Shown one piece after another: positions 1,188-16,089 of a DNA stretch of 19,305 nucleotides. The position numbers and the translations under genes are program-made. The DNA is from Deltaproteobacteria bacterium (lineage in GTDB: Bacteria > Desulfobacterota > DSM-4660 > Desulfatiglandales > Desulfatiglandaceae). The notes under the pieces were generated by a model, which saw only the letters and a program-made list of their open reading frames with translations, had not been told where the DNA came from and ran no database searches. The stretch covers positions 1 to 19,305 of the forward strand of contig JABGPV010000072.1 in NCBI GenBank assembly GCA_018644785.1, written 5' to 3'. The stretch's first letter is position 1; every line of letters begins with the position of its first letter.

Positions 1188-2705
1188 ATGAGGCCAATGT
1201 TCGTATCTTCAACAACAGGAGGGGAAGCGGTTAAACGGGTAATTGAGACGCCCCAATCTCTTCAAAAATCTGAATTCCCCCGTATACTTAATAAACAAAT
1301 TGCAGACCCGGTCCAACCTGTCCATACGCCCGTTTCCGCACGAGGGTTTCAGATCGGGAGTAAGACGTCGCTTGCGCCGAGTCGTTTTTTCCTGAATACT
1401 ATCACTGTCTCTGACTATTATCCTCCTGTATCAAACCATTCGATCAAACACCCGGCCCATGGGAAAAGGCACGGAAATATCCCTTATCCCAAATTGGACA
1501 GTGATCAGGCTGATTTGAAAATATCGGAAGGTTCCAAAGCTGTTGAAACAGATAAAGACAAAGCTGTCTTAAACAATGGTTTACAAGCAGGGCGTAAAAA
1601 CTCGCATGGGCCCGAGCTCGTTCAGATTGGAACCCTCTCCAAAAGCGACCCTACGGTCTCGGAACTTTTGATCAAACATCCGGCCTATGGGAAGAACTGC
1701 TGGAACATCCTTAACTCCAGCATAAACCGCGACAAAACCTACACCACCATACCGGGCGGTTCCCGAATATACCTAAACCCGGAAACCCATGAAATCGTAT
1801 GGAACCGTCAGGAGGTTTCCGGCAATGGCACTCAGAGGAAGAACAATACTCCGAAAAATGCTGAGCCTGTCTTCCTCGGAACACTCTCCAAAAGCAATCC
1901 TACGGTCTCGGAACTTTTGATCAAACATCCGGCCTATGGGAAAAACTGCTGGAACATCCTTAACTCCAGCATAAACCGCGACAAAACTTACACTGCCATA
2001 CCGGACGGTTCCCGCATATACTTAAACCCGAAGACTTTTGAAGTCGTGTTGAACGGGAACAAAGCCCCTGACGCACACGCTGTGCAGGCGGAACAGCCCG
2101 ATTTTCGGGCCAAACAGATAGAGCCGCGTGAATCCGATCCTTTTTCCGCAGGGCTGGTTAAAGCGCTCAAGCCATACCTTGGGAAACCCTACAAAGAAAT
2201 CAATTGTTTTGAACTGGTGGCTCAGGGACTGGAAGGGGCCGGAATTCGATACTATGGCCGCGATGGACTCGGGGAGCGGCTTGTGAAAATGGCAGCGAAA
2301 AATGGGTTGTCGAACAATCACTACCTTACGGGCGAAGGCCTCATTGAAACTTCCGGTTCACCGATTTATTCTAAATCGATTCCAAGAATCCGTAATTCAA
2401 AGACCGAGGCCCACAAGCTTTACCAAGAAGTTGCGCCTTTGCTGCATGAAGGCTTGATTCTTTCATTTTCCACACCTACCCGCGGACACACGGGAATCGT
2501 ATCCCAGAGAGAACAAAACTGGACTTATATCAACTCAGGACACATGGACAATCGCATTGAGGGCAGAACTTCAAGAGGCGTGGGTGAAGAGTTCCTGAGC
2601 GCGGAGATCAGAAACTGGTTCAGGCTTGCAGCCAATAGGAAGGAACCACTTCAAATTACCATAGGCCGGCTGGATGAAGACAAACTCAGGGCACTTTTGA
2701 TTTAG
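1188..2705 (+). CDS. NlpC/P60-like cysteine hydrolase with tandem 60-residue repeats
   Basis: This 505-residue protein has three parts. Residues about 1-75 are low-complexity and carry no signal peptide or membrane segment. Next come repeats built on PTVSELLIKHPAYGK, CWNIL, INRDK and an IPxGSRIYLNP ending. Two copies (residues about 148-205 and 231-288) are nearly identical, and a degenerate one lies near residues 70-100 (SNHSIKHPAHGK). The repeat ending resembles LysM-type or rod-binding modules, but I cannot name the family. The C-terminal 170 residues look like NlpC/P60: GKPYKEINCFELV supplies the likely catalytic Cys and RGHTGIVSQ the likely His. The usual role is cleavage of cell-wall peptides. 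Absence of a signal peptide is odd for such an enzyme and hints at another export route or a cytoplasmic role. The start is uncertain: GGGAGG lies at 1160-1165, too far from ATG 1188, and ATG 1197 is an alternative. The stop is 15 nt before the next gene's likely start. Confidence 0.75.
   Translation: MRPMFVSSTTGGEAVKRVIETPQSLQKSEFPRILNKQIADPVQPVHTPVSARGFQIGSKTSLAPSRFFLNTITVSDYYPPVSNHSIKHPAHGKRHGNIPYPKLDSDQADLKISEGSKAVETDKDKAVLNNGLQAGRKNSHGPELVQIGTLSKSDPTVSELLIKHPAYGKNCWNILNSSINRDKTYTTIPGGSRIYLNPETHEIVWNRQEVSGNGTQRKNNTPKNAEPVFLGTLSKSNPTVSELLIKHPAYGKNCWNILNSSINRDKTYTAIPDGSRIYLNPKTFEVVLNGNKAPDAHAVQAEQPDFRAKQIEPRESDPFSAGLVKALKPYLGKPYKEINCFELVAQGLEGAGIRYYGRDGLGERLVKMAAKNGLSNNHYLTGEGLIETSGSPIYSKSIPRIRNSKTEAHKLYQEVAPLLHEGLILSFSTPTRGHTGIVSQREQNWTYINSGHMDNRIEGRTSRGVGEEFLSAEIRNWFRLAANRKEPLQITIGRLDEDKLRALLI
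1629..1782 (+). repeat. Intragenic direct repeat, copy 1
   Basis: This is a 154-bp block inside the NlpC/P60-like gene, repeated at 1878-2031 with a shift of exactly 249 bp (83 codons). The two copies differ at only a handful of bases, so the duplication is recent or kept uniform by gene conversion. Confidence 0.9.
1878..2031 (+). repeat. Intragenic direct repeat, copy 2
   Basis: Second copy of the block at 1629-1782, in the same reading frame. It encodes the second PTVSELLIKHPAYGK module. Confidence 0.9.
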
Positions 2706-2720
2706 TTGACAGGGAAAGAT

Positions 2721-4196
2721 ATGAGTCAAATATTCAGGGTATTGATTGTAGATGACAACGAGGTCACCCGAAAACTGTATCGGGGAATTCTAAAGGATTT
2801 TCCCGAATTTCGAGTACGGGAGGCAAAAAACGGCAAAGAAGCTTTAGATCTGATTGCGAAATCGACGCCGGATATTGTCATTAGCGATTTGATGATGCCT
2901 GAAATGGATGGGCTGGAACTATGCCGCTACATCAAGGGCGATGCGAGCGCGAGTCTATCCACCATATATCTGATTATGGTCAGTGCGAAAGAAACCAAAG
3001 AAGACAAAATGGCCTGTATGAGGGAGGGGGCTGACGACTATCTGTTCAAGCCGGTGGATAAGGAGGAACTCCTTGCCAGGATTAAGGTGGGACAGCGAAT
3101 CGCCGCCCGGATCAGGAAAACAGAGATGGAGACCCGGAGGATGTTCGAGGAGATTGACGTCCTGCTTGTTCAGGACGGGGGATGCGCCCCCGGATACAAT
3201 CCTGTCACAGCGTTTATAACCTTCCATTTAGAGGAGATCGGCAGGGAAATTTATGCCACGGTAGAAGGATTGAAGTCTCTGGTTTCCGGAAAGCGAGATG
3301 ATTTTGTCAGGCTGGTCTACCATCCTCAGATACTAAAGAAATTGGACCAGATCCCGGGAGTATTTCATGCCGCCCCCCTTTCCGAATGGCGGGGTGCGCT
3401 TTTGAGGGGCGAAAGATACAGAGACTTCGTGAAAAGGGAAAACCAGAAAAAGGCAGCAGAAACCATCATAAAAAGAAATGTGAAAGCAATCATAGCCATT
3501 GGCGGCAACGGCACGTTTAGAGGAATCAGGGAATTATGTGATTTTCTCCCTACCGCCATCCAGGTATTCTTTGTGCCGGTGACCATTGACAGCGATGTTG
3601 CAGGAACGGAATGTATCGGCGAAAATACAGGGATTGAGATGGGGGCTGAAAAGATCAGATGTTATATGGCGGATGCCCGCACGCACAAGAGGACCTATAT
3701 TATTGAAATGATGGGCGCCAGCAGTGGTTTTCATGCCCTCCATTCCTGTTTGGGATCACGAGCGCATCTCGCTGTTCTCCCCAACAGTGTGATTGATCAC
3801 AAAAAAGTGGTCGAGGCCTTAAATCAGAAAAATGATTGCGTAATCGTGGTGGCGGAAGGGTATAGGGAGGAAGAAAGAAAAAAGGCGGGCATTAAAGACA
3901 ATGCAGCGGAATATTTCCACAAAGAACTGCTGGAAACCGGCATCAAAATCAAGAGAAAAGTGGTATGCGAACCATTTTCACGGGATATAAGAGGCGCCGG
4001 CGCCAACAATCAGGATATCACATTAGCCCAGAGGATGGCCTACAAGATAGCGGAGTATCTAAAAGCCGGGACTTCGAGGCTCATGCCCGCAGTCAGATCG
4101 GGGAGGGAATATGCCATTCCCTTCAATGAAATTCATACGGACAATTTAGTAGAAGCAGATCTTCTTGCCTTGTCCAATCGCCTCACAAGGGCATGA
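2721..4196 (+). CDS. Response regulator receiver fused to phosphofructokinase-like domain
   Basis: Residues 1-125 form a CheY-like receiver: acidic pair in VLIVDDN, phospho-acceptor D56 in VISDLMMPEMDG, and Lys in LFKPVD. A short helix leads to a domain (about 146-490) that follows the PfkA fold motif by motif: GGCAPGYN (family GGDAPGMN), RGALLRGER (GGTxLGxxR), IGGNGTFRGI (GGDGSxxGA), VPVTIDSDVAGT (PGTIDNDIxGT), EMMGASSGF (EVMGRxxG), VVAEGY. The proposed catalytic Asp of TIDxD is kept (D290), but the Mg-ATP Asp of GGDG is Asn, the Arg of MGR is Ala, and the GGT loop is altered. It may therefore be a weak kinase, use another phosphoryl donor, or only bind ligand. A longer reading from TTG 2706 is possible, but ATG 2721 has AGGGA 5 nt upstream. 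The genes on either side follow with short gaps, so it is probably co-transcribed with them. Confidence 0.88.
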   Translation: MSQIFRVLIVDDNEVTRKLYRGILKDFPEFRVREAKNGKEALDLIAKSTPDIVISDLMMPEMDGLELCRYIKGDASASLSTIYLIMVSAKETKEDKMACMREGADDYLFKPVDKEELLARIKVGQRIAARIRKTEMETRRMFEEIDVLLVQDGGCAPGYNPVTAFITFHLEEIGREIYATVEGLKSLVSGKRDDFVRLVYHPQILKKLDQIPGVFHAAPLSEWRGALLRGERYRDFVKRENQKKAAETIIKRNVKAIIAIGGNGTFRGIRELCDFLPTAIQVFFVPVTIDSDVAGTECIGENTGIEMGAEKIRCYMADARTHKRTYIIEMMGASSGFHALHSCLGSRAHLAVLPNSVIDHKKVVEALNQKNDCVIVVAEGYREEERKKAGIKDNAAEYFHKELLETGIKIKRKVVCEPFSRDIRGAGANNQDITLAQRMAYKIAEYLKAGTSRLMPAVRSGREYAIPFNEIHTDNLVEADLLALSNRLTRA

Positions 4197-4241: not shown

Positions 4242-5111
4242 ATGGAAAAAGATGACGTCCTGAAAAAAATCTATTCAAAGATAGATGAAATCCCCACTCT
4301 TCCCGCGGTAGTCCCGAAGCTATTGGGGGTGATGGAAAGGGGCGGCGCCAATGCCTCCGATATCGCCGGTACAATTTCCACTGACCCTGCCCTTTCATCA
4401 AAAATATTGAAAGTAGCGAACTCTGCCTATTATGGTTTTTCACAGGAAATCTTAAGCCTGAAACTGGCGATGCCTTTGCTTGGCCGTAACATGGTCAAAT
4501 CCCTCGCCCTATCCATCGGGGTTATTCAGAGTCTGCCTTCCCACAAAAAATCCCCCAATTTTTCAGATAAGGGACTGTGGGTGCACGGCTTGGCCGTAGC
4601 CACGCTCATGCAGGAATTGGGGAAAAGATTCAATAATGGGGGAAATACGGAGCATTTCTTCATCACCGGGTTGTTACACGATATCGGTAAAGTCGTTTTA
4701 AATCAATATTTTAACGAGTTTTTCCAAGAGGCCCTAGCGGAAGTTCATAACGAAGGGATCGCGGGACTTCATAATGCCGAAAGTAGATTGATCGGCTTCG
4801 ATCATGGTGAGATAGGCGCCATACTCTTAACGCGCTGGAAATTTCCCGACGTGATCAGTGATTCCATTGCCGCCCATCATCAAACCAAAACGCCTGAAGG
4901 GACAAACAGGCGTGATGTCGCCATGCTCCGGGTTGCAAACGCACTGCCGCAGGAGCTTAGGCTGGGGCAGGAGGGCAATCCCGTTCCACCTACTATTACC
5001 AGGCAGGACCTTAAAGCATTAGAAATAGGGGAAAATGAAATCGAAGAGATGAGGGCGTATCTGGCCGGTGTTGAGGACGAAATCTACGCCCTTTTTGATG
5101 CTATGGCTTGA
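4242..5111 (+). CDS. HDOD domain signalling protein
   Basis: This 289-residue protein matches the HDOD family over nearly its full length: LPTLP-like opening (IPTLPAVVPKLL), STDPALSSKILKVANSAYYGF, a conserved LGRNMVKSLALS stretch, then GLLHDIGK. HDOD proteins are usually found in bacterial signalling and often act as regulators rather than enzymes. Here likely metal ligands of a true HD site remain (H115, H146-D147, H188, H212/H213), so phosphohydrolase activity is not ruled out. The start ATG has AAGG 7 nt upstream and lies 45 nt after the receiver-PFK gene, in line with a three-gene transcript from the sigma54 promoter at 1108. Its stop TGA overlaps the end of the inserted element at 5110-5269. 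Confidence 0.9.
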   Translation: MEKDDVLKKIYSKIDEIPTLPAVVPKLLGVMERGGANASDIAGTISTDPALSSKILKVANSAYYGFSQEILSLKLAMPLLGRNMVKSLALSIGVIQSLPSHKKSPNFSDKGLWVHGLAVATLMQELGKRFNNGGNTEHFFITGLLHDIGKVVLNQYFNEFFQEALAEVHNEGIAGLHNAESRLIGFDHGEIGAILLTRWKFPDVISDSIAAHHQTKTPEGTNRRDVAMLRVANALPQELRLGQEGNPVPPTITRQDLKALEIGENEIEEMRAYLAGVEDEIYALFDAMA

Positions 5112-5269
5112 TGACGTCGTAAAAAATCCCATCTACTGCGTTGCAGTGATTTTTCAGACTCTCAACATACTACATGTATGCCTTCGATCCTGAAAAATCA
5201 CTGCGCCTTGTATATGAAACTTTTTACTTAGCCATCTATAGCGAAAATCGGACTTTTTACGGGACCATC
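5110..5269. mobile_element. 160-bp MITE-like element with terminal inverted repeats and target duplication
   Basis: The ends form an imperfect terminal inverted repeat of about 20 bp: GATGACGTCGTAAAAAATCC at 5110-5129, and the complement of GGACTTTTTACGGGACCATC at 5250-5269. ATGGCTT flanks both ends (5103-5109 and 5270-5276; the match extends to ATGGCTTGA), as expected for a target-site duplication. Inside is a perfect 14-bp inverted repeat (5144-5157 and 5190-5203, CAGTGATTTTTCAG) around a TACATGTA-containing loop. There is no coding capacity, so it would depend on a transposase elsewhere. It lies between two convergent genes and its hairpins could end transcription in both directions. Confidence 0.8.
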
Positions 5270-7193
5270 ATGGCTTGACCTCTTTCGGCTCCAACCAGAT
5301 AACGTCATAGGGCTGTAATGTAATAAAAAGCGTCTCGTTTTCGGCCATCCATTCCATTCCACTCACAAGATCATACCACCTCGCTTCATCCGTTCCAATT
5401 TCAGACAATGGTATTTCCAGGTGGGTAACCCCGCTTGTCACATTTGTCAGGGTCAGAATGAATCGATCCTCTTGCGGGGATCTCCTGATAACAGAAAAGA
5501 CGGAAGGCGATATGGATAGGACTCGTTGAGTTCCGGCGGGGTGAAAGGCACGGTGTTTTGTTCGGATGACGATGAGTCTCCCTAACTCCCGGCTGATCCT
5601 GGAAAACTTGGAAAGAGGATCTTTCAATGTTTCGATAACAGCCCCGGCATCAATCACGGTGCGGTTGATATCCCGATTTGATTGGGTTGCCAGAACCGCT
5701 TCGATGTCGTTCCGGGTACCAATCAGGCTGTGCAGATAAATCCCCGGGACACCCCGAAGAACCAGGGCGATAATTCTGGATGCCACAAACCGCTTGACCT
5801 GAAAGGCGATATCATCATCGCTGTCATCCCGGTTAAGGGCGCTGAACCAGGTGATATTGATTTCATAAGGCACTTCGGTGCCGTCCCGACCCGTCTTATA
5901 TGAGACATACCCGCCATGTTTCTCTGCCCTTTGAATGATAAACGCAATTTCTTCCTCAGTAAGGATTCCCCGTACCGCCATGACGCCGATGCCGTCATGG
6001 GAATCCAGGAAATTAAAGAAAGTCGTCGTATCCGAAACGAATTCCAACCCATCAGCCCATCCGGACAGGGCGGTGGCATCCTCTGTATAGAATGTGTGGA
6101 GAACAAGCGGCGGCAACGCAAAATTGTACACCATATGCGCCTCATCATGGCCATCGCCGAAATAAGAGACGTTCTCCTTGTGCGGCACATTGGTTTCGGT
6201 TATCAGGGCCACCCTCGGTGCAACAATATTCAAAACGTCGCGAAAGAGCTTCACGATCTCATGGGTCTGGGCCAGGCTGACGCATTGGGTTCCGGGCGCA
6301 GTCCATAGATATGTAACGGCATCCAAACGAATAGTGCCGGCGCCCTTACGCACGTAAAAAAGCAGGATCTCGATGACCCGCATCAACACGTCCGGATTGG
6401 TATAGTTGAGGTCTATCTGGTCTTTTGAGAAAGTAGTCCATACATGCATAGGGCCCGTTATGCTCTGAAACTCGGAAAGGATATCAGAAGTCCTTGGACG
6501 AAATATCTTCTTTCGCGCCTCTGCCGACAACTCATCCGGCGTGACAAAATGGATAAAAAATCCCCAATAATAGGGATTGCCATTTAGAAATTCCTGAAAC
6601 CAGCGGCTTTCGGATGATACATGATTGAAAACCCCGTCAAACATCAAACGATACCGACCTTCAAGCGCTTCGATATCCGCCCACGTCCCAAGATTGGGGT
6701 CAACGGTTTCGAAATCGGTGACAGAGAATCCCCTGTCGGAGGAGTAGGGGAAAAAGGGGAGGAGATGAAGCGTATTGATGGTCCCACCCAGATATGTGTC
6801 ACAGAATTCAGCCAGATCTGCGAGGGGCGTGGGCCCTTTACCGCGTAGGAGATCTCCGTAAGTGATCAGGATGACGTCCTCTTGAGTAAATCTCTCTTCG
6901 GGATCAAGCCCCTTATCCTCTTCTATCAATGCCTCAGTTTTATGGGCGTAGTAAACCTCGAGTATCCGTTCAAGTTCAGGCATGTAAGCATCGGCCACAG
7001 GTTCGCCGTAAAGGAAGTTCAAGCGACCCAGGATCCGTTTTCGATCTTCAGGAGGAATCTCTAAAAGAGGTCTCGTGAAATCCGGTTTCGGATTGTGGAA
7101 GGTATGAGGCCCCCCCGGATCTCCGAGAGGCGTGGCATCAGCGGTATCCATTTTGTCTGTGTTATCGTCCATTGCGACCCATAAAATTCCCAT
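5268..7193 (-). CDS. GH13 sucrose phosphorylase-like glycoside phosphorylase
   Basis: The product has about 640 residues and is a complete GH13 (alpha-amylase superfamily) enzyme without a signal peptide, so cytoplasmic. Counting from GTG 7205, the barrel shows THLLPFFPY-like region I (LHLLPFFPYSSDRGFSV), DGVFNHVS, nucleophile D295 in TIRLDAVTYLW, acid/base E337 in LITETNVPH, and transition-state Asp D404 in FLDSHDGIGV. The overall pattern fits subfamily 18, which holds sucrose, glucosylglycerate and glucosylglycerol phosphorylases. These cleave a glucoside with phosphate to give glucose-1-phosphate. Which glucoside is used cannot be read here; in an anaerobic deltaproteobacterium a compatible-solute glucoside is as likely as sucrose. 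The start is uncertain: ATG 7193 has AGGTGA 8 nt upstream, with GTG 7205 and ATG 7172 as alternatives. All of them overlap the end of the MORN gene, implying coupled translation. Its stop codon is supplied by the end of the inserted element. Confidence 0.85.
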   Translation of the reverse strand: MGILWVAMDDNTDKMDTADATPLGDPGGPHTFHNPKPDFTRPLLEIPPEDRKRILGRLNFLYGEPVADAYMPELERILEVYYAHKTEALIEEDKGLDPEERFTQEDVILITYGDLLRGKGPTPLADLAEFCDTYLGGTINTLHLLPFFPYSSDRGFSVTDFETVDPNLGTWADIEALEGRYRLMFDGVFNHVSSESRWFQEFLNGNPYYWGFFIHFVTPDELSAEARKKIFRPRTSDILSEFQSITGPMHVWTTFSKDQIDLNYTNPDVLMRVIEILLFYVRKGAGTIRLDAVTYLWTAPGTQCVSLAQTHEIVKLFRDVLNIVAPRVALITETNVPHKENVSYFGDGHDEAHMVYNFALPPLVLHTFYTEDATALSGWADGLEFVSDTTTFFNFLDSHDGIGVMAVRGILTEEEIAFIIQRAEKHGGYVSYKTGRDGTEVPYEINITWFSALNRDDSDDDIAFQVKRFVASRIIALVLRGVPGIYLHSLIGTRNDIEAVLATQSNRDINRTVIDAGAVIETLKDPLSKFSRISRELGRLIVIRTKHRAFHPAGTQRVLSISPSVFSVIRRSPQEDRFILTLTNVTSGVTHLEIPLSEIGTDEARWYDLVSGMEWMAENETLFITLQPYDVIWLEPKEVKP

Positions 7194-8835
7194 CCCTGAA
7201 TTCACCTATCAGTTTCTCACCATCCGGCGTGGTCAAAATCCCCTGGCCATCTCTTTTGTCATCTTTCCATTCACCCAAATATTTTAGACCGTCAGAGGCG
7301 GTAAAAAACCCCTGCCCATCCCTTTTACCATCCTTCCAGGAACCTTCATATCTTGATCCATCAGGGTAGGTCATAATCCCTCGTCCATGGATTTTGTCAT
7401 TCTTGAATTCACCTTCATATCTTGATCCATCAGGGTAGGTCATAATCCCTCGTCCATGGATTTTGTCATTCTTGAATTCACCTTTATATCTTGATCCATC
7501 AGGGTAGGAATAAACTCCCTGTCCCTCTCTTTCACCATCCTCCCACTCACCATCATATTTCTTCCCCTCCGGACCTGTGGAAACCCCATCCCCATGGGGC
7601 CTACCATCCTCCCACGCACCTTCATATTTTGATCCATCAGGGTAAGAATAAAACCCCTGCCCATCCCTTTTACCATCCTTCCAGGAACCTTCATATTTCC
7701 TGCCGTCAGGATGGGAATAAATCCCAGCGCCATCCCTTTTATCATTCCGCCAGTCACCTTCATATTTTGAACCGTCAGGGTAGAAATAAACCCCCTGCCC
7801 ATCTCTTTTACCATCCTTCCAAGAACCTTCATATTTCCTGCCGTCAGGATGGGAATAAATCCCCACCCCATCTCTTTTACCATCCTTCCACGCACCTTCA
7901 TATTCTGATCCATCAGGGTAGAAATAAACCCCCTGCCCATCTCTTTTATCATCCTTCCAAGAACCTTCATATTTCCTGCCGTCAGGATGGGCATAAATCC
8001 CCACCCCATCTCTTTTACCATCCTTCCACGCGCCTTCATATTTTGAACCATCGGGGTAATTTAGAATCCCTCGTCCTGCTCTTTCACCATCCTTGAATTC
8101 TCCAACATATTTCTTGTCCTGGCTGATCAAAATTCCATTCCCATGGGGTTTATCATCCTTCCATTCACCCTCATATTTTTTACCATTAGAATAAATATAT
8201 ACCCCTTGCCCATCCCTTTTACCATCCTTCCAGGAACCTTCATATTTCCTGCCGTCAGGATGGGAATAAATCCCAGCGCCATCCCTTTTATCATTCCGCC
8301 AGTCACCTTCATATTTTGAACCGTCAGGATAGGTCAAAGTCCCTTGCCCATCCCTTTTACCATCCTTCCAGGAACCTTCATATTTTGAACCGTCAGGATA
8401 GGTCAAAGTCCCTTGCCCATCCCTTTTACTATCCTTCCATGCGCCTTCATATTTTGAACCGTCAAAATAAATATACGTCCCCTGTCCATCCCTCTTATCA
8501 TCAATCCAGTCACCCTCAAATTTTGAACCGTCAAGATAGGTCAAAATCCCTTTTCCATCCCTTTGGCTATCCTTCCACGCACCTTCATATTTTGAACCGT
8601 CAGGATAGGTATATATGCCTTGTCCATGTGCCATATAGTCCTTGAAATGACCCACATATTTTGAACCATCAGGGTAGGCATAAGCCCCTTGGCCATTGAC
8701 ACAGTCACCTTCAACACATTTCCCAAATATCGTTACGGGTAGAAAACATACCAACAACAGGAGAGAAACAAAAGCGATACGCCTTTTGGCTTGTGGACCT
8801 TGAACTAATTGAGACAATTTAAACTCTCTGAACAT
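7162..8835 (-). CDS. Exported MORN-repeat protein (22 repeats)
   Basis: This 557-residue protein starts with a positively charged N-region and a hydrophobic core (residues about 18-38, RRIAFVSLLLLVCFLPVTIFG), so it is probably exported. There is no lipobox. From residue 48 to 552 it consists of 22 consecutive MORN units of 23 residues (one of 22), with pattern GxGxYxYPDGSKYEGxWKDxKRD, followed by GRNGR. MORN repeats form an elongated beta-sheet; in eukaryotes some bind lipids, but bacterial roles are mostly unknown. Two Cys (C40, C45) precede the repeats. The annotated ATG lacks a good ribosome site; TTG at residue 7 (preceded by AGAGAG) is an alternative start. It overlaps the downstream GH13 gene, so the two are probably one transcript. 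Units 6-7 and 14-15 are almost identical, as are 18-20, showing recent repeat shuffling. Confidence 0.88.
   Translation of the reverse strand: MFREFKLSQLVQGPQAKRRIAFVSLLLLVCFLPVTIFGKCVEGDCVNGQGAYAYPDGSKYVGHFKDYMAHGQGIYTYPDGSKYEGAWKDSQRDGKGILTYLDGSKFEGDWIDDKRDGQGTYIYFDGSKYEGAWKDSKRDGQGTLTYPDGSKYEGSWKDGKRDGQGTLTYPDGSKYEGDWRNDKRDGAGIYSHPDGRKYEGSWKDGKRDGQGVYIYSNGKKYEGEWKDDKPHGNGILISQDKKYVGEFKDGERAGRGILNYPDGSKYEGAWKDGKRDGVGIYAHPDGRKYEGSWKDDKRDGQGVYFYPDGSEYEGAWKDGKRDGVGIYSHPDGRKYEGSWKDGKRDGQGVYFYPDGSKYEGDWRNDKRDGAGIYSHPDGRKYEGSWKDGKRDGQGFYSYPDGSKYEGAWEDGRPHGDGVSTGPEGKKYDGEWEDGEREGQGVYSYPDGSRYKGEFKNDKIHGRGIMTYPDGSRYEGEFKNDKIHGRGIMTYPDGSRYEGSWKDGKRDGQGFFTASDGLKYLGEWKDDKRDGQGILTTPDGEKLIGEFRDGNFMGRNGR
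7180..8694 (-). repeat. 69-bp tandem repeat array encoding MORN units
   Basis: Twenty-two units with a 69-bp period (one 66 bp). Neighbouring units at 7372-7440 and 7441-7509 are almost base-for-base identical, and a two-unit block near 7700-7830 recurs near 8230-8340. The array can expand or contract by slippage without changing frame. Long frames on the opposite strand here are by-products of the repeat. Confidence 0.9.
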
Positions 8836-10082: not shown

Positions 10083-10766
10083 CTATATTCGTCTCTTGGA
10101 TTCCTCCAAGATCTTTTCGATTAAAGCATAATAGGGGCTTTCTCCCGGAATTGCCTCCTTTAGGTGATCAGCGTAGCTTTCGATCTTCTCCAATGCTTCT
10201 GACTGTGTATCGATTATCTCTTCATATCCCTTTTGCATGCCAAACAGGTGATCAATCTTTGTACCCAAGGTCCTCAATATCTCCTGAAGTTTATTTTCCG
10301 GGATATCGTCTCTGTTTACCAGTAAATCCAACAGTTGATTGTGGAGTGCCTTATGTATTTGCAAAGTATTTTCTGAATTAAGGAACCGCTTATATTCCAA
10401 TACCCTGTCAATTTTTTCTTTTAATTCATTAAGGGGAATAGGCTTCATCACATAATCAAAGGCGCCCAGTTTCATAGCGTCCACAGCGCTTTCTACAGTG
10501 GCATACCCCGTAATCATGATGACCTCGGTCAAAGGGTTATGCTCTTTTACATGCTTTAGAAGGCTCATCCCACCCTCATTATTACCCCCTGTACCAGGCA
10601 TATTTTTGTCGGTCAGAAGAATGTCATAGTCATTTGTTTGCATCAGCGCTAACGCACTGTCCACACTCCCCGCCAGGTCAACGTGGTATCCAATCCCTTC
10701 CATAAAATCAGAAAGCGTATCAAGGATATTCTTTTCATCATCTGCGATCAGTATTCTTGCTTTCAT
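10083..10766 (-). CDS. Response regulator with C-terminal helical extension, no DNA-binding domain
   Basis: The protein has 227 residues from the ATG at 10766, which has AGGAGG five bases upstream; a longer reading to 10787 is less likely. Residues 1-120 form a receiver: acidic D9-D10, phospho-acceptor D53 in LLTDKNMPG, Thr/Gly in MITGYAT and Lys in YVMKPIPL. A short glycine/asparagine insert (GTGGNNEGG) follows the phosphorylation loop. The remaining 105 residues are charged and helix-forming (KLQEILRTLGTKIDHLF, ALEKIESYADHLKEAI) and carry no helix-turn-helix, GGDEF or HD motif. Receivers of this type (YVMKPI, ESAVDAMKLGAFDY) normally head NtrC-like activators. The gene lies 52 nt downstream of an activator that lacks a receiver, so the two may be halves of one regulatory unit. 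This is inference from order. Confidence 0.88.
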   Translation of the reverse strand: MKARILIADDEKNILDTLSDFMEGIGYHVDLAGSVDSALALMQTNDYDILLTDKNMPGTGGNNEGGMSLLKHVKEHNPLTEVIMITGYATVESAVDAMKLGAFDYVMKPIPLNELKEKIDRVLEYKRFLNSENTLQIHKALHNQLLDLLVNRDDIPENKLQEILRTLGTKIDHLFGMQKGYEEIIDTQSEALEKIESYADHLKEAIPGESPYYALIEKILEESKRRI

Positions 10767-10818
10767 CCAGCCTCCTTTTATCCACACCTCAATCCCAACC
10801 GGAACCCATCAACAAAAG

Positions 10819-11838
10819 CTATGGCGCCCGGTTGTTCCGGACTTGCTTCAGCACCTTCGGGTCGGGTAAACTCAGGTGGTGCCTCTTGATTTTTTCCACA
10901 AGGGTTGTTCGCTTTAGATGGAGAAGCTGCGCAGCCTTGTTTTTCACGCCTTTAGCCTTTTGTAAGGATTGAATTATCAAGGCTTTTTCAAAATCTGTTA
11001 CAGCCGTATTAAGACATATACCCTCACCTGCAATCTCAATGGTTTCGCCACCCGGTTGCGCTTTGATCGACCGTACGATTTTTTCCGGCAAATCGTGTCT
11101 CTTTATTGTCCCTTCCTGTTTCAGTACAACAAGCCTCTCAATTAAATTCTTAAGCTCTCTGACGTTCCCCGGCCATGCATACTCCGACAACTGTTTGAGG
11201 ACATTTTCTGAAAATCCTTCAATATTATAATCATTCTTTTTATTGAAAGTTTTAAGGAAATACCTTGCCAGAAGGGGAACGTCACGTTGTCGATTTCTCA
11301 GCGGTGGTAAATTTAGAGGTATTACATAAAGTCGGTAAAACAGATCTTCACGAAACAGGCCTTTCTCGACCTGTCTTTCCAGGTTCCGATGGGTGGCGGC
11401 GATTACGCGAACATCCGCTCTTGTGGTTTTATTACCACCGACCTGCTCGAATTCACCCTCCTCCAGAACCCTCAATATCTTTACCTGAAGGTTTGCGCTC
11501 ATATCACCAATTTCATCCAAGAAAATGGTGCCGCTGTTGCCCCTCTCAAACTTTCCGGTCTTGTTTGTGACAGCTCCGGTAAAGGCCCCCCGCACATGGC
11601 CGAACAATTCGCTTTCTAATAGATTTTCCGGGATGGCCCCGCAATTGATCGATACGAAGGGCCTGTCAACCCTCTTAGAATTCAGGTGGATAGCCCTGGC
11701 TGCCAGCCCCTTGCCGGTGCCGGTTTCCCCGGTAATCAGAATGGTGGTGTCGCTTGAGGCAACCCGCTCGATAACCTTGAAAACTTTTTGGATTTCGAAA
11801 CTCTGCCCGATTATCCCATCAAATTTCAGTTGGAGCAT
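10819..11838 (-). CDS. Sigma54-dependent transcriptional activator lacking a receiver domain
   Basis: This 339-residue protein starts almost directly with the AAA+ domain: Walker A GETGTGKG (37-44), the sigma54-contact loop GAFTGA (84-89), Walker [11 protein letters not shown] (104-113), and the arginine region [11 protein letters not shown] Fis-type helix-turn-helix ends the protein (283-320, [10 protein letters not shown] to LVEKIKRH). It lacks the usual N-terminal regulatory domain, like PspF, so its activity must be controlled by a partner or by its level. The start ATG has GGGAG about six bases upstream. Its enhancer sites are not identified; both sigma54 promoters in this window (1108 and 12091) are candidate targets, and the second lies just upstream on the opposite strand. 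The next gene in the transcript is a response regulator without an output domain. Confidence 0.93.
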
Positions 11839-11917
11839 GAAATACTCCCACGGGGATATTGCATTAACTTCTTAGAACAGCTTTCATGAAAGGCTATTAG
11901 CTCTGTTTTCCCGTATA

Positions 11918-11946
11918 AGTTTAGGAGGATCAAACACGTTTGTCAA
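11918..11946 (-). promoter_or_regulatory. Candidate sigma70-type promoter for the sigma54-activator operon
   Basis: On the minus strand TTGACA (11941-11946) is a perfect -35 box, followed after 17 bases by TAAACT (11918-11923), a four-of-six -10 box. Transcription would start near 11911, about 70 nt upstream of the activator gene. Confidence 0.45.
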
Positions 11947-11968
11947 TCAGTCAGGGAATGAACAAAAG

Positions 11969-11982
11969 AAATGACGTCATTT
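11969..11982. promoter_or_regulatory. 14-bp perfect palindrome, possible operator
   Basis: AAATGACGTCATTT reads the same on both strands. It sits between the two divergent -35 boxes (11941-11946 on minus, 11985-11990 on plus), where a dimeric regulator could control both directions. No regulator can be named from the sequence. Confidence 0.45.
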
Positions 11983-11984
11983 TC

Positions 11985-12012
11985 TTGACGAAATCACCAA
12001 TCATGCTACAAT
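11985..12012 (+). promoter_or_regulatory. Candidate sigma70-type promoter towards the response regulator
   Basis: TTGACG (11985-11990), 16-bp spacer, TACAAT (12007-12012). Transcription would start near 12019, giving a leader of about 200 nt that runs through the sigma54 promoter at 12091. It would provide basal expression beside the inducible promoter. Confidence 0.45.
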
Positions 12013-12090
12013 TGACGCGTACATGCCCATTGAGTGGCAATCCATAATAGAAACAGCCTGCAGTCATTGATATTTGTGGATTCTCTGTTC

Positions 12091-12105
12091 TGGCACAATG
12101 TTTGC
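12091..12105 (+). promoter_or_regulatory. Sigma54 (-24/-12) promoter
   Basis: TGGCAC, five bases, TTGC, with GG at 12092-12093 and GC at 12104-12105: exact GG-N10-GC spacing. The expected start is near 12116, about 108 nt upstream of the response-regulator gene at 12224. The leader contains a possible GGAA/ATCC to GGAT/TTCC stem near 12135-12167. Confidence 0.82.
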
Positions 12106-12223
12106 CTATTTTTTAAACGGGCAGGCAACTATTAAGGAAAAGGAAAAGATCCGCAGAGGATTTCCTGAATAAGCAAGTGAAAATTCCAAGATATTTGTTA
12201 TATGTTGAAAGGGAGAGACCCCT

Positions 12224-13003
12224 ATGAGTATTCTAATTGTGGAAGACAATCCGGTAAACGCTAGAATACTGACCATTCATCTTCAAAAGGCCGGTTACGA
12301 AACCATAGTTGCGCACAGTGCAGAAGAGGCACTGGAATGTCTCATGTCCAATCCCCGGATCAGGCTTGTAATTACCGACATTATGATGTCGGGAATGAGC
12401 GGGCTACAACTCCTTGATAAAATAAAGGCGTTGCCCGATTGGAAAGATATACCCGTGATCATGTGCTCTTCTCTTGCGGATTTGGAAACTGTCAAAAAAG
12501 CCATGAAAGCAGGCTGTAAGCATTATTTAATTAAGCCGGTGGACAAGAATAATCTACTGCGGAATGTTCGGGAGGCCCTAAAACATAGCAAGCTTATCTT
12601 GAAAGACAAGAAGGACGTTATGACCCGGTTGGGTTTAGACAAGAATTCCTATGAAGAGGTTGCCGACATTTTTCTAGCGATGGTGAATGAAAAAATTATT
12701 CAATTGGAAAAGCAGACGGCAGATGAAGATCCCCAAAAGCTCTCCATACATGTATCGGAATTATCGGAGAATGCAATTTCCTTTGGCGCCGAAAGGCTCG
12801 CGGAAGTTCTGGAAAAACTTTCCCCAGGCGAAATTCAGGGTGGTGTAGAGAGCCACAGTTCCAATTATTCTTTGCTCCTAAAGGAATTGAAGCTTGTTAA
12901 AGATGCTTTGGAGGGACAGACGGAAAAAGCCAAAATATCATCCAAGGCCAAGCCCAGTGAGAAAGACGTTGAGAAATCAAAAAAAACGGTTAAGAAAAGT
13001 TAA
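12224..13003 (+). CDS. Response regulator with degenerate HPt-like domain and Lys-rich tail
   Basis: This 259-residue protein has a receiver (1-125): E7-D8, phospho-acceptor D52 in VITDIMMSGMSG and Lys in YLIKPVD. The Pro that normally follows the phosphorylated loop is Ser. Residues about 135-205 look like an HPt four-helix domain, ending FGAERLAEVLEKLSPG. However, in the expected HSLKGSAxxxGA motif the His and Gly are missing (SELSENAISFGA), so it probably cannot carry phosphate in the usual way. The last 30 residues are rich in Lys, Ser and Glu. There is no DNA-binding domain. A GGGAG ribosome site precedes ATG. The sigma54 promoter at 12091 points to this gene, so its level should depend on a sigma54 activator, presumably the divergent neighbour. 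The HPt reading is moderate; the receiver is certain. Confidence 0.88.
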   Translation: MSILIVEDNPVNARILTIHLQKAGYETIVAHSAEEALECLMSNPRIRLVITDIMMSGMSGLQLLDKIKALPDWKDIPVIMCSSLADLETVKKAMKAGCKHYLIKPVDKNNLLRNVREALKHSKLILKDKKDVMTRLGLDKNSYEEVADIFLAMVNEKIIQLEKQTADEDPQKLSIHVSELSENAISFGAERLAEVLEKLSPGEIQGGVESHSSNYSLLLKELKLVKDALEGQTEKAKISSKAKPSEKDVEKSKKTVKKS

Positions 13004-13080
13004 GGGCCTAACCAAAGATATTTGAAATTTTGAAATCGATATTCTGCGGTTCAAATAAAGGGTTACGGACACAAAGGGGG

Positions 13081-13558
13081 ATAGTACGGACAAGGCCGTA
13101 CCTTAATCCTCGTTCCTATACCCTTCGTGCGGGAACGCACTTTCGGACGCTCACGTCCTTTTTGTCTTGCAACGGTCCCTGTCCCATAGGGACATTTGAA
13201 AATAGCCCGGCAATTTATTGTCGGGATTTGATGTCCCGCAATTTTTTTAGTCCCATCGGGACGACAGAAAATGGCCGGGAAAGGAATCATGAGTGGGAAA
13301 TTCCCATATCAGCGTTACATTCGAAGAAGAATACCTTGATTTTTTGAAGAAAAATGATGTCTCTTATGATGAGCGATATATCTGGGTTTGAAGGCTGGAA
13401 CTTTCGAGATCTGCCGTCCCTACGGGACTAATTGCATTTACACGAACACATCCCGGCAATGAATTGCCGGGCTATTTTCATGAGTCCCTACGGGACAGAA
13501 AGTCGGCATGTGCTGTGCCGACTTATGTCTGTAGCGAAACAAAGCCAATAAATGCAAT
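13081..13558. repeat. Cluster of REP-like palindromes
   Basis: At least nine hairpin-forming palindromes lie in this stretch. They include GTACGG/CCGTAC (13084-13101), GTGCG/CGCAC (13127-13140), GGACG/CGTCC (13145-13158), four GTCCC-NNN-GGGAC units (13181-13193, 13250-13262, 13416-13428, 13484-13496), CCCGGCAAT/ATTGTCGGG (13206-13225), CCCGGCAAT/ATTGCCGGG (13452-13471), and a 9-bp AGTCGGCA-type stem (13500-13524). ATTGCATTTA (13431-13440) and its complement (13549-13558) bracket the last group, so units are nested. Such clusters are typical of REP/BIME intergenic repeats. Confidence 0.75.
13293..13391 (+). pseudogene. C-terminal remnant of a probable REP-associated (IS200-like Y1) transposase
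   Basis: An open frame of 32 codons ends at TGA 13389-13391 and reads HISVTFEEEYLDFLKKND then VSYDERYIWV. This resembles the usual C-terminus of RAYT/Y1_Tnp proteins, where a TFQEEYxxFLKKxxxxYDERYxW ending is common. The catalytic HUH and Tyr parts are absent; an in-frame TGA lies at 13290-13292. The palindromes on both sides are the kind of sequence such transposases recognise. The identification rests on a short tail recalled from the family, so it is moderate. Confidence 0.5.
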
Positions 13559-13684
13559 GTGTTACAAATGTGAGAGATGAACTCTCAGAGTGAAACTGTA
13601 AGAATCTAAAGATACGCACGCGGTAGATCCTCCTTTCCAGATGATGATCAGGCTACGTCAGTTTAGGAGTTTTGCGAGGAAACC
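13525..13684. other. Leader region of the PocR-type hybrid kinase
   Basis: No gene is seen. GAGAG/CTCTC near 13570-13590 could make a small stem. No convincing sigma70 or sigma54 promoter was found, so the kinase promoter is unassigned. Confidence 0.3.
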
Positions 13685-15754
13685 ATGAAATACACCTTCA
13701 AAGAACTGATTGATTTGCCCAAATTGCAGGAACTGACCGATGAATTGTACACCGCTGCTTCCATTCCTTCAGCCGTTATCACAGTGGACGGGGAGATTCT
13801 AACCGGATCCGGATGGCAAAAGATATGTGCGGATTTTCACAGAAAACACCAACAGATCGAAAAAGAATGCATCGAAAGCGACATAACTATCAGAAAGAAG
13901 TTGGATGATGGCGAACCTTTTGTGATCTACAAATGCCCGCGAGGACTGGTTGACGCATCGGCGCCGGTTATCATAGCTGGGGAACACATGGCAAACGTTT
14001 TTTCAGGGCAGGTCTTTTTGGAGCCACCTGACGAAACCACGGAACAGTTTTTCAGGGAACAGGCGCGAAAATTCGGGTTTGACGAAACAGATTACATTAA
14101 AGCATTCAAGGAAGTTCCGATTTTCACAGAGAAAAAGTTTCGAGCGGGTATCACCTTCCTTGCTAAATTAGCGCAATCAATTGCCGACACGGGTTTTACG
14201 CGGCTAAGGGAGTTGGAGGCTATGGAGGTGCTGCGGGAGGGTGAAAATAAATTTCGCAGTTTTGCGGAACAATCGCTTGTCGGCATCTATCTCATCTCAG
14301 ATGATGTCTTCAAATATGTTAACCCGAAATTTGCCGAAATGTTTGGCTACAGTGTTGATGAATGCCTGGACAACATGCATTTTCCACAACTTGTGCATCC
14401 CGAGGATTTGGCTACGGTTAAAGAACAGGTAGGGAGACGGGTTTCCGGAGAAACCAAAGCCGTTCAATATTCTTTCAGAGGAATCACGAAAAGTGGCGAT
14501 ACAATCCATGTTGAAATTTTCGGCTCTTTCATGGTTTTAAGAGGCGAGATTGTTGCCACTGGAACCATGTTGGAAATCACCGATCGAAAGCAGGCGGAAG
14601 AAAAAAGGAAACAACTCCAAGCCCAACTCCAGCAAGCCCTGAAGATGGAAGCCATGGGCACCTTGGCAGGCGGTATTGCCCATGACTTTAACAATCTGCT
14701 CATGGCCATCGAGGGACGTGCTTCGATAATGCTGATGAATAAGGCGTCTTCCCATCCTGATTTTCGACACCTGAAAGGGATAGAAGAAAATATTGAAAGC
14801 GCCGCCGACTTAACCAGGCAACTCTTAGGCTTTGCCAGAGGTAGAAAATATGAGGTCAAGCCAACTGATTTGAATGAAGTCGTCAAGAAAGAAAACCGCA
14901 TGTTTGGCCGGACCAAGAAAGAGATCACTATCCGTGGCAAATATGGAAAGGATCTCTGGACTGTAGAGGTCGATCGGGGGCAGATCGAACAGGTCCTGCT
15001 GAATCTTTATGTGAATGCCTGGCAGGCAATGCCCGGGGGTGGTGAGCTATATTTGGAAACAGAGAATGTGGCCCTTGACGAAACTGATGTGAAACCGTTT
15101 CCCATTGAACCCGGAAAATATGTGAAAATATCCGTTATCGACACAGGCGTCGGAATGGATAAAGCAACCCGGGAAAAGATATTTGAGCCTTTCTTTACCA
15201 CCAAAGAGATGGGCAGGGGCACCGGCTTGGGGTTGGCCTCCGCCTATGGAATCGTCAAGAATCACGGTGGATTCATCAATGTTTACAGCGAAAAAGGTCA
15301 TGGGACCACCTTCAATATCTATCTGCCTGCTTCTGAAAAGGAGATCATTGAAGAGAAGAAACCCGCCGGGGACACATTAAGGGGATCTGAGACTGTTCTT
15401 TTCGTAGATGACGAAGATATGATAATTGAAATTGCCGAGGAAATATTTGAGCAGTTGGGTTACAAAGTCTTGACAGCAAGGAGCGGAAAAGAAGCTATTG
15501 AGATATATGAGAAAAACAAAGAACAGATTGACATAGTGCTTCTGGACATGATCATGCCGGACATGAGTGGCAGCGATACCTATGACAAGATGAAAAAGAT
15601 CGATCCTGATATAAAGGTGCTCCTTTCCAGTGGGTACAGCATCAATGGTCAAGCAACCGAGATAATGGATCGAGGCTGCAATGGTTTTATTCAGAAGCCC
15701 TTCAAGATGAAAGAATTGTCACAAAAATTGAGGGAAATTTTGGACAAGAAATAG
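13685..15754 (+). CDS. Hybrid histidine kinase: PocR sensor, PAS, HisKA, HATPase, receiver
   Basis: This 689-residue protein has no membrane segment. Residues about 5-175 form a PocR-type ligand-binding domain ([18 protein letters not shown]; conserved-looking Cys 62 and Cys 84; [10 protein letters not shown]), a module that usually senses small hydrocarbon-derived molecules. A PAS domain spans about 190-300. The dimerisation helix carries phospho-acceptor H333 in [11 protein letters not shown]. The ATPase domain shows the N box ([10 protein letters not shown]), G1 DTGVGM and G2 GTGLGLA. A C-terminal receiver (570-689) has D574-D575, phospho-acceptor D621 in [12 protein letters not shown] and the Lys of FIQKPF. 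A hybrid kinase of this type needs a downstream phosphotransfer protein; none with an intact HPt is seen in the window. ATG 13685 has GAGG six bases upstream. Confidence 0.93.
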
Positions 15755-15755
15755 G

Positions 15756-15779
15756 ACCGAATATGCGGCTATGTTCGGT
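15756..15779 (+). terminator. Short hairpin directly after the PocR-kinase stop
   Basis: ACCGAA (15756-15761) pairs with TTCGGT (15774-15779). It begins two bases after the stop codon but has no T tract. A comparable TCAACC/GGTTGA stem (18898-18918) follows the second kinase, suggesting a shared 3'-end arrangement. Confidence 0.3.
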
Positions 15780-15814
15780 AATGCCCGACGCAACATTTCC
15801 TATATTTGTATTGA

Positions 15815-15901
15815 ATTTCAAAGCCTTCTAAGAAAGTCAGGATTACATCTCCCAGCCTTGCATAATGCCGGAGGATGTGCCATGCTGGGTTCATGCACGA
15901 A
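15815..15901 (+). repeat. 87-bp dispersed repeat, copy 1
   Basis: The sequence from ATTTCAAAGCCTT to TGCACGAA occurs again at 18941-19027 with six differences by eye. It contains CCCAGC (15851-15856) and GCTGGG (15884-15889), which can form an imperfect hairpin. It follows the first hybrid kinase gene by about 60 nt. Confidence 0.85.
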
Positions 15902-16021
15902 TCTTAGCATCTAAATAAGCCAGAATTAGTCCTCGTTAATTCGGATTACATTAGAACCACTGTGACGATAAAATACGGTCGAACATAACTGAAGCTGGGA
16001 GCATACATGATGGATTCGCAA

Positions 16022-16063
16022 AGGCTCATGCATATTATCAAGAAAATGTATGAGCCTTTTTTA
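16022..16063 (+). terminator. Rho-independent terminator just upstream of the heme-kinase gene
   Basis: AGGCTCATGCAT (16022-16033) pairs with ATGTATGAGCCT (16046-16057) in a 12-bp stem with one G-U pair, followed by a T-rich tract. It lies only about 14 nt before the ribosome site of the next gene, so it either ends transcripts from upstream or acts as an attenuator in that gene's leader. Confidence 0.75.
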
Positions 16064-16089
16064 TTTTGAGGGTATTTGGAGAATTTGTG

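What the first reader, a model, noticed from the sequence alone, without database searches (positions are those of the whole stretch)
2721..4196. Receiver domain fused to a divergent phosphofructokinase
A CheY-like receiver with a complete phosphorylation site is joined to a domain that keeps the whole PfkA motif order, including the TIDxD catalytic Asp, while changing the Mg-ATP Asp (GGDG to GGNG), the MGR Arg (to Ala) and the GGT loop. It may be a phosphorylation-gated glycolytic enzyme, a PPi- or other-donor kinase, or a sugar-phosphate/nucleotide sensor that talks to the receiver. I know of no described system of this kind.
Basis: partly seen in the sequence, partly recalled or inferred. 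Interest (0 to 1): 0.78.

Follow-up and report, generated by a model that had tools for sequence, protein, structure and literature searches.

The report
Phosphofructokinase wired to two-component signalling
A bacterial gene joins the phosphorylation switch of two-component signalling to a protein that looks like phosphofructokinase, a main control point of sugar breakdown, and it belongs to an enzyme branch, for which I found no published study, whose other members carry a cyclic-nucleotide sensor in the same place.

Summary
ORF 2721-4196 (+) is a receiver (Pfam E 1.9e-31) joined to a full-length PFK domain (E 7.7e-45). It is no assembly accident: 119 of the 120 listed relatives carry the fusion (the other is a fragment cut inside it), as do 24 of 27 sampled genomes holding this PFK. 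The altered motifs are a family signature: GGC, GGNGT, VTIDSD, MGA, SRDIRG. A second large group has the same signature with a cyclic-nucleotide-binding domain in place of the receiver; domain-less myxobacterial relatives share part of it (GGNGT, MGN). In a 53-row tree the receiver form arises once. One predicted helix runs from either input domain into PFK strand 1, which ends in the GGCAPG loop; receiver Lys to GGC is 43 residues in all 120 uncut proteins. Catalytic and most sugar-phosphate residues are kept; R21, R25, R154 and E187 of the classical effector site are replaced, though its other positions align uncertainly. Gly104 and Gly108 favour ATP over PPi or ADP. I read it as a sugar-phosphate kinase, most likely ATP-phosphofructokinase, under control of signalling domains. 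Catalysis and gating are untested.

The parts
2721..4196 (+). Receiver-phosphofructokinase fusion gene, 491 aa plus stop
   Evidence: same fusion in 119 of the 120 relatives listed
2736..3095 (+). Receiver domain (about residues 6-125); D11 2751-2753, D12 2754-2756, phospho-acceptor D56 2886-2888, S88 2982-2984, K110 3048-3050
   Evidence: Pfam Response_reg 7-122 E 1.9e-31; acidic pair + D56 + S/T88 + K110 all present in 66 of 120 receiver-type proteins, D56 with K110 in 109 of 120
3060..3149 (+). Continuous predicted helix, residues 114-143, from receiver alpha-5 into PFK beta-1
   Evidence: AlphaFold2 model, mean pLDDT 90.2; K110 to GGC is 43 residues in 120 of 121 proteins, the other (P0019) being a fragment that begins just after the receiver Lys-Pro
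3159..4184 (+). PFK domain (residues 147-488)
3177..3194 (+). GGCAPG loop (residues 153-158) at the end of beta-1; Cys155 in place of E. coli Asp12
   Evidence: C155 in 120 of 120 receiver-type and 120 of 120 cNMP-type proteins
3501..3524 (+). Phosphate-donor motif GGNGTxxG (residues 261-268): Asn at E. coli D103; Gly at 104 and 108
   Evidence: donor signatures from PMC11609450
3582..3596 (+). Catalytic TIDSD (residues 288-292), equivalent to E. coli T125-D129
   Evidence: invariant in 120 of 120 receiver-type proteins
3981..3995 (+). R421-D-I-R424-G block, equivalent to E. coli H249-R252 (sugar-phosphate side); R421 replaces H249
   Evidence: R421 and R424 in 240 of 240 proteins

Best explanation
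The gene encodes a response regulator whose output is a phosphofructokinase-type sugar-phosphate kinase. SHOWN by sequence or model: both domains, their recurrent fusion, kept catalytic residues, an ATP-type glycine pair in the donor motif, replacement of four classical effector residues (R21, R25, R154, E187), a predicted continuous helix of fixed length between receiver and PFK, and a cyclic-nucleotide-binding domain in the receiver's place on the same PFK branch. INFERRED: a histidine kinase encoded elsewhere phosphorylates D56; receiver alpha-5 and the helix that extends it shift or pair; this moves PFK strand 1 and the GGCAPG loop at its end, switching phosphoryl transfer from (most likely) ATP to (most likely) fructose 6-phosphate. 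In the sister group a bound cyclic nucleotide would drive the same helix. The branch may thus have exchanged metabolite feedback for signal-transduction control of a glycolytic step. Rough odds, my judgement: an active kinase 0.75; ATP as donor given activity 0.7; gated by the receiver given activity 0.8.
For: Domains. cNMP_binding+PFK on the same branch: L142; 119 of 120 proteins listed for it, its own entry included; branch found in 14 of 296 genomes of the phylum of G464, the genome of a record titled Bacteroides sp., of which 12 were fetched: 11 match the cNMP-type N-terminal profile strongly, 1 weakly. Same signature in both types, counts of 120 and 120: C155 120/120, N263 117/112, V287 120/119, A333 119/114, R421 120/120. 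Kept: R232 (R72), D290 (D127), D292 (D129), R324 (R162), M331 (M169), R424 (R252) in 240 of 240 and E379 (E222 by the alignment) in 239 of 240. Effector residues over 240: Arg at R21 and R154 in 0, at R25 in 5; Glu at E187 in 0, Asp in 20. Helix 114-143 in the receiver model, pLDDT 90.2, and 125-151 in the cNMP model, pLDDT 87.7; fixed spacing of 43. PFK half more conserved than the receiver: median identity to P0001 78% against 57%. 22 of 27 genomes hold another PFK match over the cut-off, so the fused copy looks dedicated.
Against: No biochemical data. D103 and R171 of E. coli PfkA are changed and R243 is not conserved, so donor, substrate and rate are uncertain. Loss of the effector site is only partly shown: K213 aligns to Arg/Lys in 40 of 42 rows (but to Tyr), K211 to Lys in 16 of 24 cNMP-type rows and R54 to Arg in 10 of 24 or to an invariant Arg197 in 120 of 120 receiver-type proteins; these stretches align differently in the two alignments, and D59 is absent from the four ordinary PFKs too. 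The receiver is less conserved than the PFK: the full set is present in 66 of 120 and 8 of 120 lack D56, so some members may be phosphorylation-independent. One relative (L133) lacks the receiver and keeps the PFK. No partner kinase was seen beside the gene. The models are monomers and say nothing on conformational change.
Confidence: 0.56

Rival explanations
1. Pseudo-enzyme: the PFK domain no longer catalyses but binds a sugar phosphate or nucleotide and reports it to the receiver or a partner protein.
For: Loss of D103 (Mg-ATP side, recalled) and R171, kept in 3 of 4 ordinary PFKs aligned at each; 22 of 27 genomes have another PFK match that could do the metabolic work.
Against: The residues of phosphoryl transfer are invariant: D290, D292, R232, R324 and R424 in 240 of 240, while the receiver drifts; a pure binder need not keep the catalytic Asp. 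Asp occurs at N263 in 3 of 120 and 8 of 120, as if N and D were interchangeable.
Confidence: 0.18
2. Active kinase using another donor (PPi, polyphosphate, ADP, GTP) or another acceptor (for example sedoheptulose 7-phosphate), still gated by the input domain.
For: The donor loop and R171 differ from E. coli PfkA; R243 is not conserved and H249 is replaced by Arg, so the acceptor pocket is remodelled. Genomes with the fusion also hold GGDDT/PKTMDND-type PFKs (L081 in G002, L082 in G001), which look PPi-type.
Against: The PPi signature needs Asp at 104 and the ADP signature Ile at 108 (PMC11609450); here both are Gly in 240 of 240.
Confidence: 0.17
3. The receiver is an assembly or localisation module, not a gate: it pairs subunits or docks the enzyme, and phosphorylation is secondary or absent.
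For: Receiver acidic pair eroded in many members and D56 lost in 8 of 120; a receiver-less relative exists.
Against: K110 kept in 116 of 120 and D56 in 112 of 120; exchange with a ligand-sensing cNMP domain through a similar helix points to switching.
Confidence: 0.09

Closest known systems
Bacterial ATP-dependent PfkA (E. coli PfkA; S. aureus PFK 5xz7)
   Different: N-terminal receiver and helix; GGN for GGD, MGA for MGR, Arg for H249, effector residues R21, R25, R154, E187 replaced.
Cyclic-nucleotide-binding-domain + PFK proteins (sources name Deltaproteobacteria, Desulfobacterales, Calditrichia, Chloroherpetonaceae MAGs)
   Same: Same PFK branch with the same signature; a similar helix into strand 1.
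   Different: Input domain is cNMP_binding instead of a receiver. Two paper searches gave no description of these.
Domain-less PFKs of myxobacteria, including Polyangium and Sorangium (P0242-P0361)
   Same: Three MAG members (L147, L162, L163) fall on the same branch in the tree; GGNGT in 119 of 120 and MGN in 120 of 120 of the proteins listed for L147.
   Different: Only PFK in the Pfam column of 120 of 120; GGN/GGD in place of GGC, MGN in place of MGA; the three MAG members are 39-41% identical to L142's PFK.
Myxococcus xanthus PFK activated by the Ser/Thr kinase Pkn4
   Same: A bacterial PFK under signalling control by phosphorylation (Nariya & Inouye 2002; I saw only its title in the reference lists of PMC1262709 and PMC6213207 and a table row in the latter).
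   Different: A separate kinase acts on the PFK; whether that PFK belongs to this branch was not tested.
Response regulators with enzymatic output (PleD diguanylate cyclase)
   Same: PleD gives the best receiver match among solved chains by sequence.
   Different: Output there makes a second messenger (recalled); here it resembles a central-metabolism enzyme.

Membership tests
PFK-A superfamily (PF00365) | Profile match over the family cut-off and full length | tested here: met
PFK-A superfamily (PF00365) | Catalytic Asp equivalent to E. coli D127 | tested here: met
   D290, 240 of 240 proteins
Named NCBIfam PFK families (PRK03202, PFK_mixed, PFKA_ATP, PFKA_PPi_Ttgales) | Score over the curated cut-off | tested here: not met
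   130.6/253, 111.6/430.55, 104.1/371.35, 93.3/550 bits
ATP-dependent PFK-A | Published signature GGDGSxxG, letter for letter | tested here: not met
   GGNGTxxG; D to N and S to T (signature from PMC11609450)
ATP-dependent PFK-A | Gly at 104 and 108, the discriminating positions | tested here: met
   Gly at both in 240 of 240
PPi-dependent PFK-A | Asp at position 104 | tested here: not met
   Gly264
ADP-dependent PFK-A | Ile at position 108 | tested here: not met
   Gly268
PEP/ADP-regulated bacterial PfkA | Effector-site residues R21, R25, R154, E187 (roles recalled) | tested here: not met
   A164, F168, M316, H349 in the window protein; over 240 proteins Arg at R21 and R154 in 0, Arg at R25 in 5, Glu at E187 in 0 with Asp in 20
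PEP/ADP-regulated bacterial PfkA | Effector-site residues R54, K211, K213, H215 (roles recalled) | tested here: inconclusive
   The alignments place these stretches differently; basic residues are present in one or the other
Two-component response regulator | Acidic pair, phospho-acceptor Asp, Ser/Thr, Lys | tested here: met
   D11, D12, D56, S88, K110 in the window protein; full set in 66 of 120 receiver-type proteins
Two-component response regulator | Phosphorylated by a histidine kinase | not testable with these tools
   No biochemistry; no cognate kinase identified
Phosphofructokinase (activity) | Fructose 6-phosphate phosphorylation | not testable with these tools
   Needs an assay

The most novel reading that the evidence does not exclude
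A whole branch of phosphofructokinases has given up classical metabolite allostery and is switched instead by interchangeable signalling modules: two-component phosphorylation in one lineage, cyclic nucleotides in another, possibly a neighbouring Ser/Thr kinase in myxobacteria. The fused modules would act through a helix into the same strand, giving cells direct post-translational command of the committed step of glycolysis.
Probability: 0.42. Interest if true: 0.85.

Novelty: new variant of a known kind. Interest (0 to 1): 0.68.

Why it matters
Phosphofructokinase is a textbook allosteric enzyme. A branch in which key effector residues are replaced while sensor domains are attached through a fixed helix would show how allosteric control can be replaced by modular signalling, with two unrelated input domains on one catalytic domain as a natural experiment. 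It would also add a candidate glycolytic enzyme to the outputs of two-component systems, in bacteria known here mostly from metagenome-assembled genomes. It is directly testable: 491 aa, one gene, standard assays.

Tried and rejected
Assembly or gene-call artefact: rejected, the fusion recurs in 119 of 120 listed relatives and 24 of 27 genomes.

Conserved operon partner or adjacent histidine kinase: not found. In 28 loci (27 fetched plus the window) the commonest neighbour families occur in 9, 8 and 7 loci; by Pfam of one representative each these are a pyrroline-5-carboxylate-reductase-like protein, an alpha/beta hydrolase and formate-tetrahydrofolate ligase. Only 18 neighbour proteins were scanned by Pfam (10, 8); none is a histidine kinase. 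Several contigs are short, so absence is weak.

(genome collection with the whole protein) was a poor choice: of 80 loci kept only L001 and L002 match over the full length; the others match mainly the receiver. Later searches used the PFK family or the PFK part.

PPi or ADP dependence: rejected as first choice on donor-motif residues.

Ser/Thr kinase link in myxobacteria: an STPK lies convergently next to the PFK in 2 of 3 loci (L164, L165; the two kinases 74% identical; none found in the 6.7-kb contig L166). Myxobacteria have many such kinases (recalled), so this is a lead only. Whether the M. xanthus Pkn4 target belongs here was not tested.

Limits of the samples: the lists are the best 120 of 1326, 549 and 495. 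The alignment left out P0019 (380 aa, a fragment that begins just after the receiver Lys-Pro). One search used 120 receiver-type (window protein included) and 120 cNMP-type proteins; it aligned E. coli E222 to G390, whereas one search gave E379, which I use. A1 holds 65 of 120 receiver-type plus 13 cNMP-type, A2 50 of 120. The tree is a hand-picked 53 rows without L085-L087; it has long outer branches, an unresolved base and a midpoint root. In one search my pattern for the FSR block missed 119 of 120 outgroup proteins and the TIDxD pattern 31 of 120, so those motifs are not counted there. One search extracted wrong or no frames for several loci and was replaced; itself gave an antisense frame for L147, replaced.

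Full report

It is a family, not an accident. A search of about 5.8 billion proteins gave 1326 relatives among 7998 scored; of the 120 listed, 119 bear both Pfam domains and the last, P0019, is a fragment that begins just after the receiver Lys-Pro. With the PFK half as query, 19 of 85 genomes of the class of G001 (the genome of the closest MAG, L001, titled Desulfobacteraceae) have a match, all at 75% identity or more. In a sample of 395 genomes of its phylum 16 match at E 1e-20 or better, of which 14 belong to the branch (60-97% identity) and 2 are ordinary PFKs at 30-34%; nothing lies between. The two searches together give 27 genomes with the branch: 24 receiver+PFK, one cNMP+PFK (G240), one without receiver (G077) and one interrupted by a TAG (G047).

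The altered motifs are a signature. Aligned with E. coli PfkA from L146, the 120 receiver-type proteins (window protein included) have Cys at D12 (120), Asn at D103 (117; Asp in 3), Gly at 104 and 108 (120 each), Val at G124 (120), Ala at R171 (119) and Arg at H249 (120), while R72, D127, D129, R162, M169 and R252 are kept in all 120. The 120 cNMP-type proteins give nearly the same counts: N at D103 in 112, Asp in 8, Ala at R171 in 114. The domain-less myxobacterial relatives share part of it: GGNGT in 119 of 120 and MGN, not MGA, in 120 of 120; they have GGN or GGD rather than GGC. Asn at 103 is not unique to the branch: one of four other PFKs aligned has it too.

Two input domains on one catalytic branch. 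L142 (G240) has a cyclic-nucleotide-binding domain at 98-174 before the PFK; 119 of the 120 proteins listed for it (its own entry included; 549 in all) have the same pair, and P0158 lacks the input domain in the Pfam column. Names given by sources include Deltaproteobacteria, Desulfobacterales, Calditrichia and Chloroherpetonaceae MAGs. 14 of 296 genomes of the phylum of G464 (genome of a record titled Bacteroides sp.) carry this branch; of the 12 fetched as loci, 11 have a strong and one (L160) a weak match to the cNMP-type N-terminal profile, and two were not fetched. A loose pattern for the phosphate-binding cassette matches 84 of 120, and Arg97 of P0122, in that cassette, is invariant in the 50 proteins of A2, so ligand binding is plausible for many. 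In a tree of 53 selected rows the branch is separated from the ordinary PFKs included (100/100), and all receiver forms plus the receiver-less L133 make one group (98/97): one origin of the receiver form and one loss is the simplest account. The order of the deeper forks is open.

How the parts connect. Both models show one helix from the input domain into PFK strand 1: residues 114-143 here and 125-151 in P0122 (pLDDT 87.7). From the receiver Lys-Pro to GGC the distance is 43 residues in 120 of 121 proteins, the exception being the cut P0019; from FGE to GGC in the cNMP type it is 75 in 101 of the 107 in which FGE is found in range, 13 lacking it. A fixed distance suits mechanical coupling better than a loose tether; that is inference.

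Catalysis and donor. Shen et al. 2024 (PMC11609450; abstract, section 6 and search passages seen) give GGDGSxxG for ATP, GGDGSxxI for ADP and GG(D/E)D(S/T) for PPi. Here it is GGNGTxxG, so the two discriminating glycines say ATP, with one charge removed. That D103 serves Mg-ATP, and which residues form the effector site, are recalled, not taken from a call.

The effector site. Over 240 proteins, Arg is found at R21 in none, at R25 in 5 and at R154 in none, and Glu at E187 in none with Asp in 20, whereas four ordinary PFKs have Arg at R21 in 4, Arg or Lys at R25 in 4, Arg or Lys at R154 in 3 and Glu or Asp at E187 in 4. Against a clean loss: R54, K211, K213 and H215 fall in stretches that align differently, and basic residues do occur there (K213 to Arg/Lys in 40 of 42 rows; R54 to an invariant Arg197 in receiver-type proteins); D59 is no guide because the four ordinary PFKs lack it too. 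So the ADP/PEP site is altered, perhaps lost. This is one ground for saying that signalling domains may have taken the place of metabolite allostery.

Evidence that cuts the other way. The receiver drifts: the full set of acidic pair, D56, Ser/Thr88 and Lys110 is found in 66 of 120, D56 with K110 in 109, D56 in 112. Median identity to the window protein is 57% in the receiver and 78% in the PFK. R243 is not conserved. Some members may therefore be phosphorylation-independent, and the substrate could differ from fructose 6-phosphate.

Setting. Neighbour genes are shared by at most 9 of 28 loci. In the window the gene follows an unassigned 505-aa ORF by 15 bases and is followed by an HDOD-domain gene (4242-5111); L143 (G001) has related genes in the same order. 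A GH13-type gene lies at 5268-7205 on the other strand. Two hybrid histidine kinases begin 9.5 and 11.9 kb downstream, not adjacent. 22 of 27 genomes with the branch have at least one other PFK match over the cut-off, that of G123 with a stop inside; G001 has six PFK genes, among them a GGDDT type. In 140 genomes of the phylum of G473 (a Myxococcaceae MAG) 3 have a domain-less member; an STPK gene lies beside it in 2 of the 3 loci.

Literature. Ten searches of open-licence PubMed Central were run; seven bear on such fusions or on response-regulator outputs and three on PFK types, residues and Pkn4. No listing showed a paper describing a receiver-PFK or a cNMP-PFK protein; apart from passages of four papers and one section I judged from listings. 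Most subscription papers are outside that library, so 'undescribed' means not found there. A loosely similar case is a trypanosomatid PGK-like protein with a cyclic-nucleotide-binding domain (PMC4106842, passages).

Verdict. A real and conserved arm of the phosphofructokinase superfamily joined to signalling modules, for which I found no study. It is a new variant of two known kinds (PFK-A enzyme, response regulator) rather than a new kind. Enzyme activity and gating are the two untested steps.

Noticed in passing
4242-5111 (+): HDOD-domain gene directly downstream of the fusion, same strand, with a relative in the same place in L143; possibly co-transcribed.
   Followed up: partly
1188-2705 (+): 505-aa ORF ending 15 bases before the fusion, with an internal repeated block (PTVSELLIKHPAYGKNCWNILNSSINRDKTYT twice) and no Pfam match; a related gene is upstream in L143.
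   Followed up: partly
7162-8835 (-): Protein with 21 MORN-repeat stretches (Pfam E 2.8e-148).
   Followed up: no
5268-7205 (-): Alpha-amylase-family (GH13) protein, perhaps of the sucrose-phosphorylase type (recalled resemblance); a relative lies in the same place in L143.
   Followed up: no
10083-18897: Cluster of signalling genes: receiver protein, sigma-54 activator without receiver, receiver protein with long tail, PocR-PAS and Tll0287-like-PAS hybrid histidine kinases.
   Followed up: partly
L085, L086 (G001): Two further PFK-family proteins of the same genome with degenerate motifs (GPNELG / GPHELG, PKAIEND) in place of GGDG and TIDND; possible inactive PFKs.
   Followed up: no
L164 10263-11834 (-), L165 10064-11278 (-): Related Ser/Thr protein kinases (74% identity) convergent with the domain-less GGNGT PFK in two myxobacterial genomes.
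   Followed up: partly
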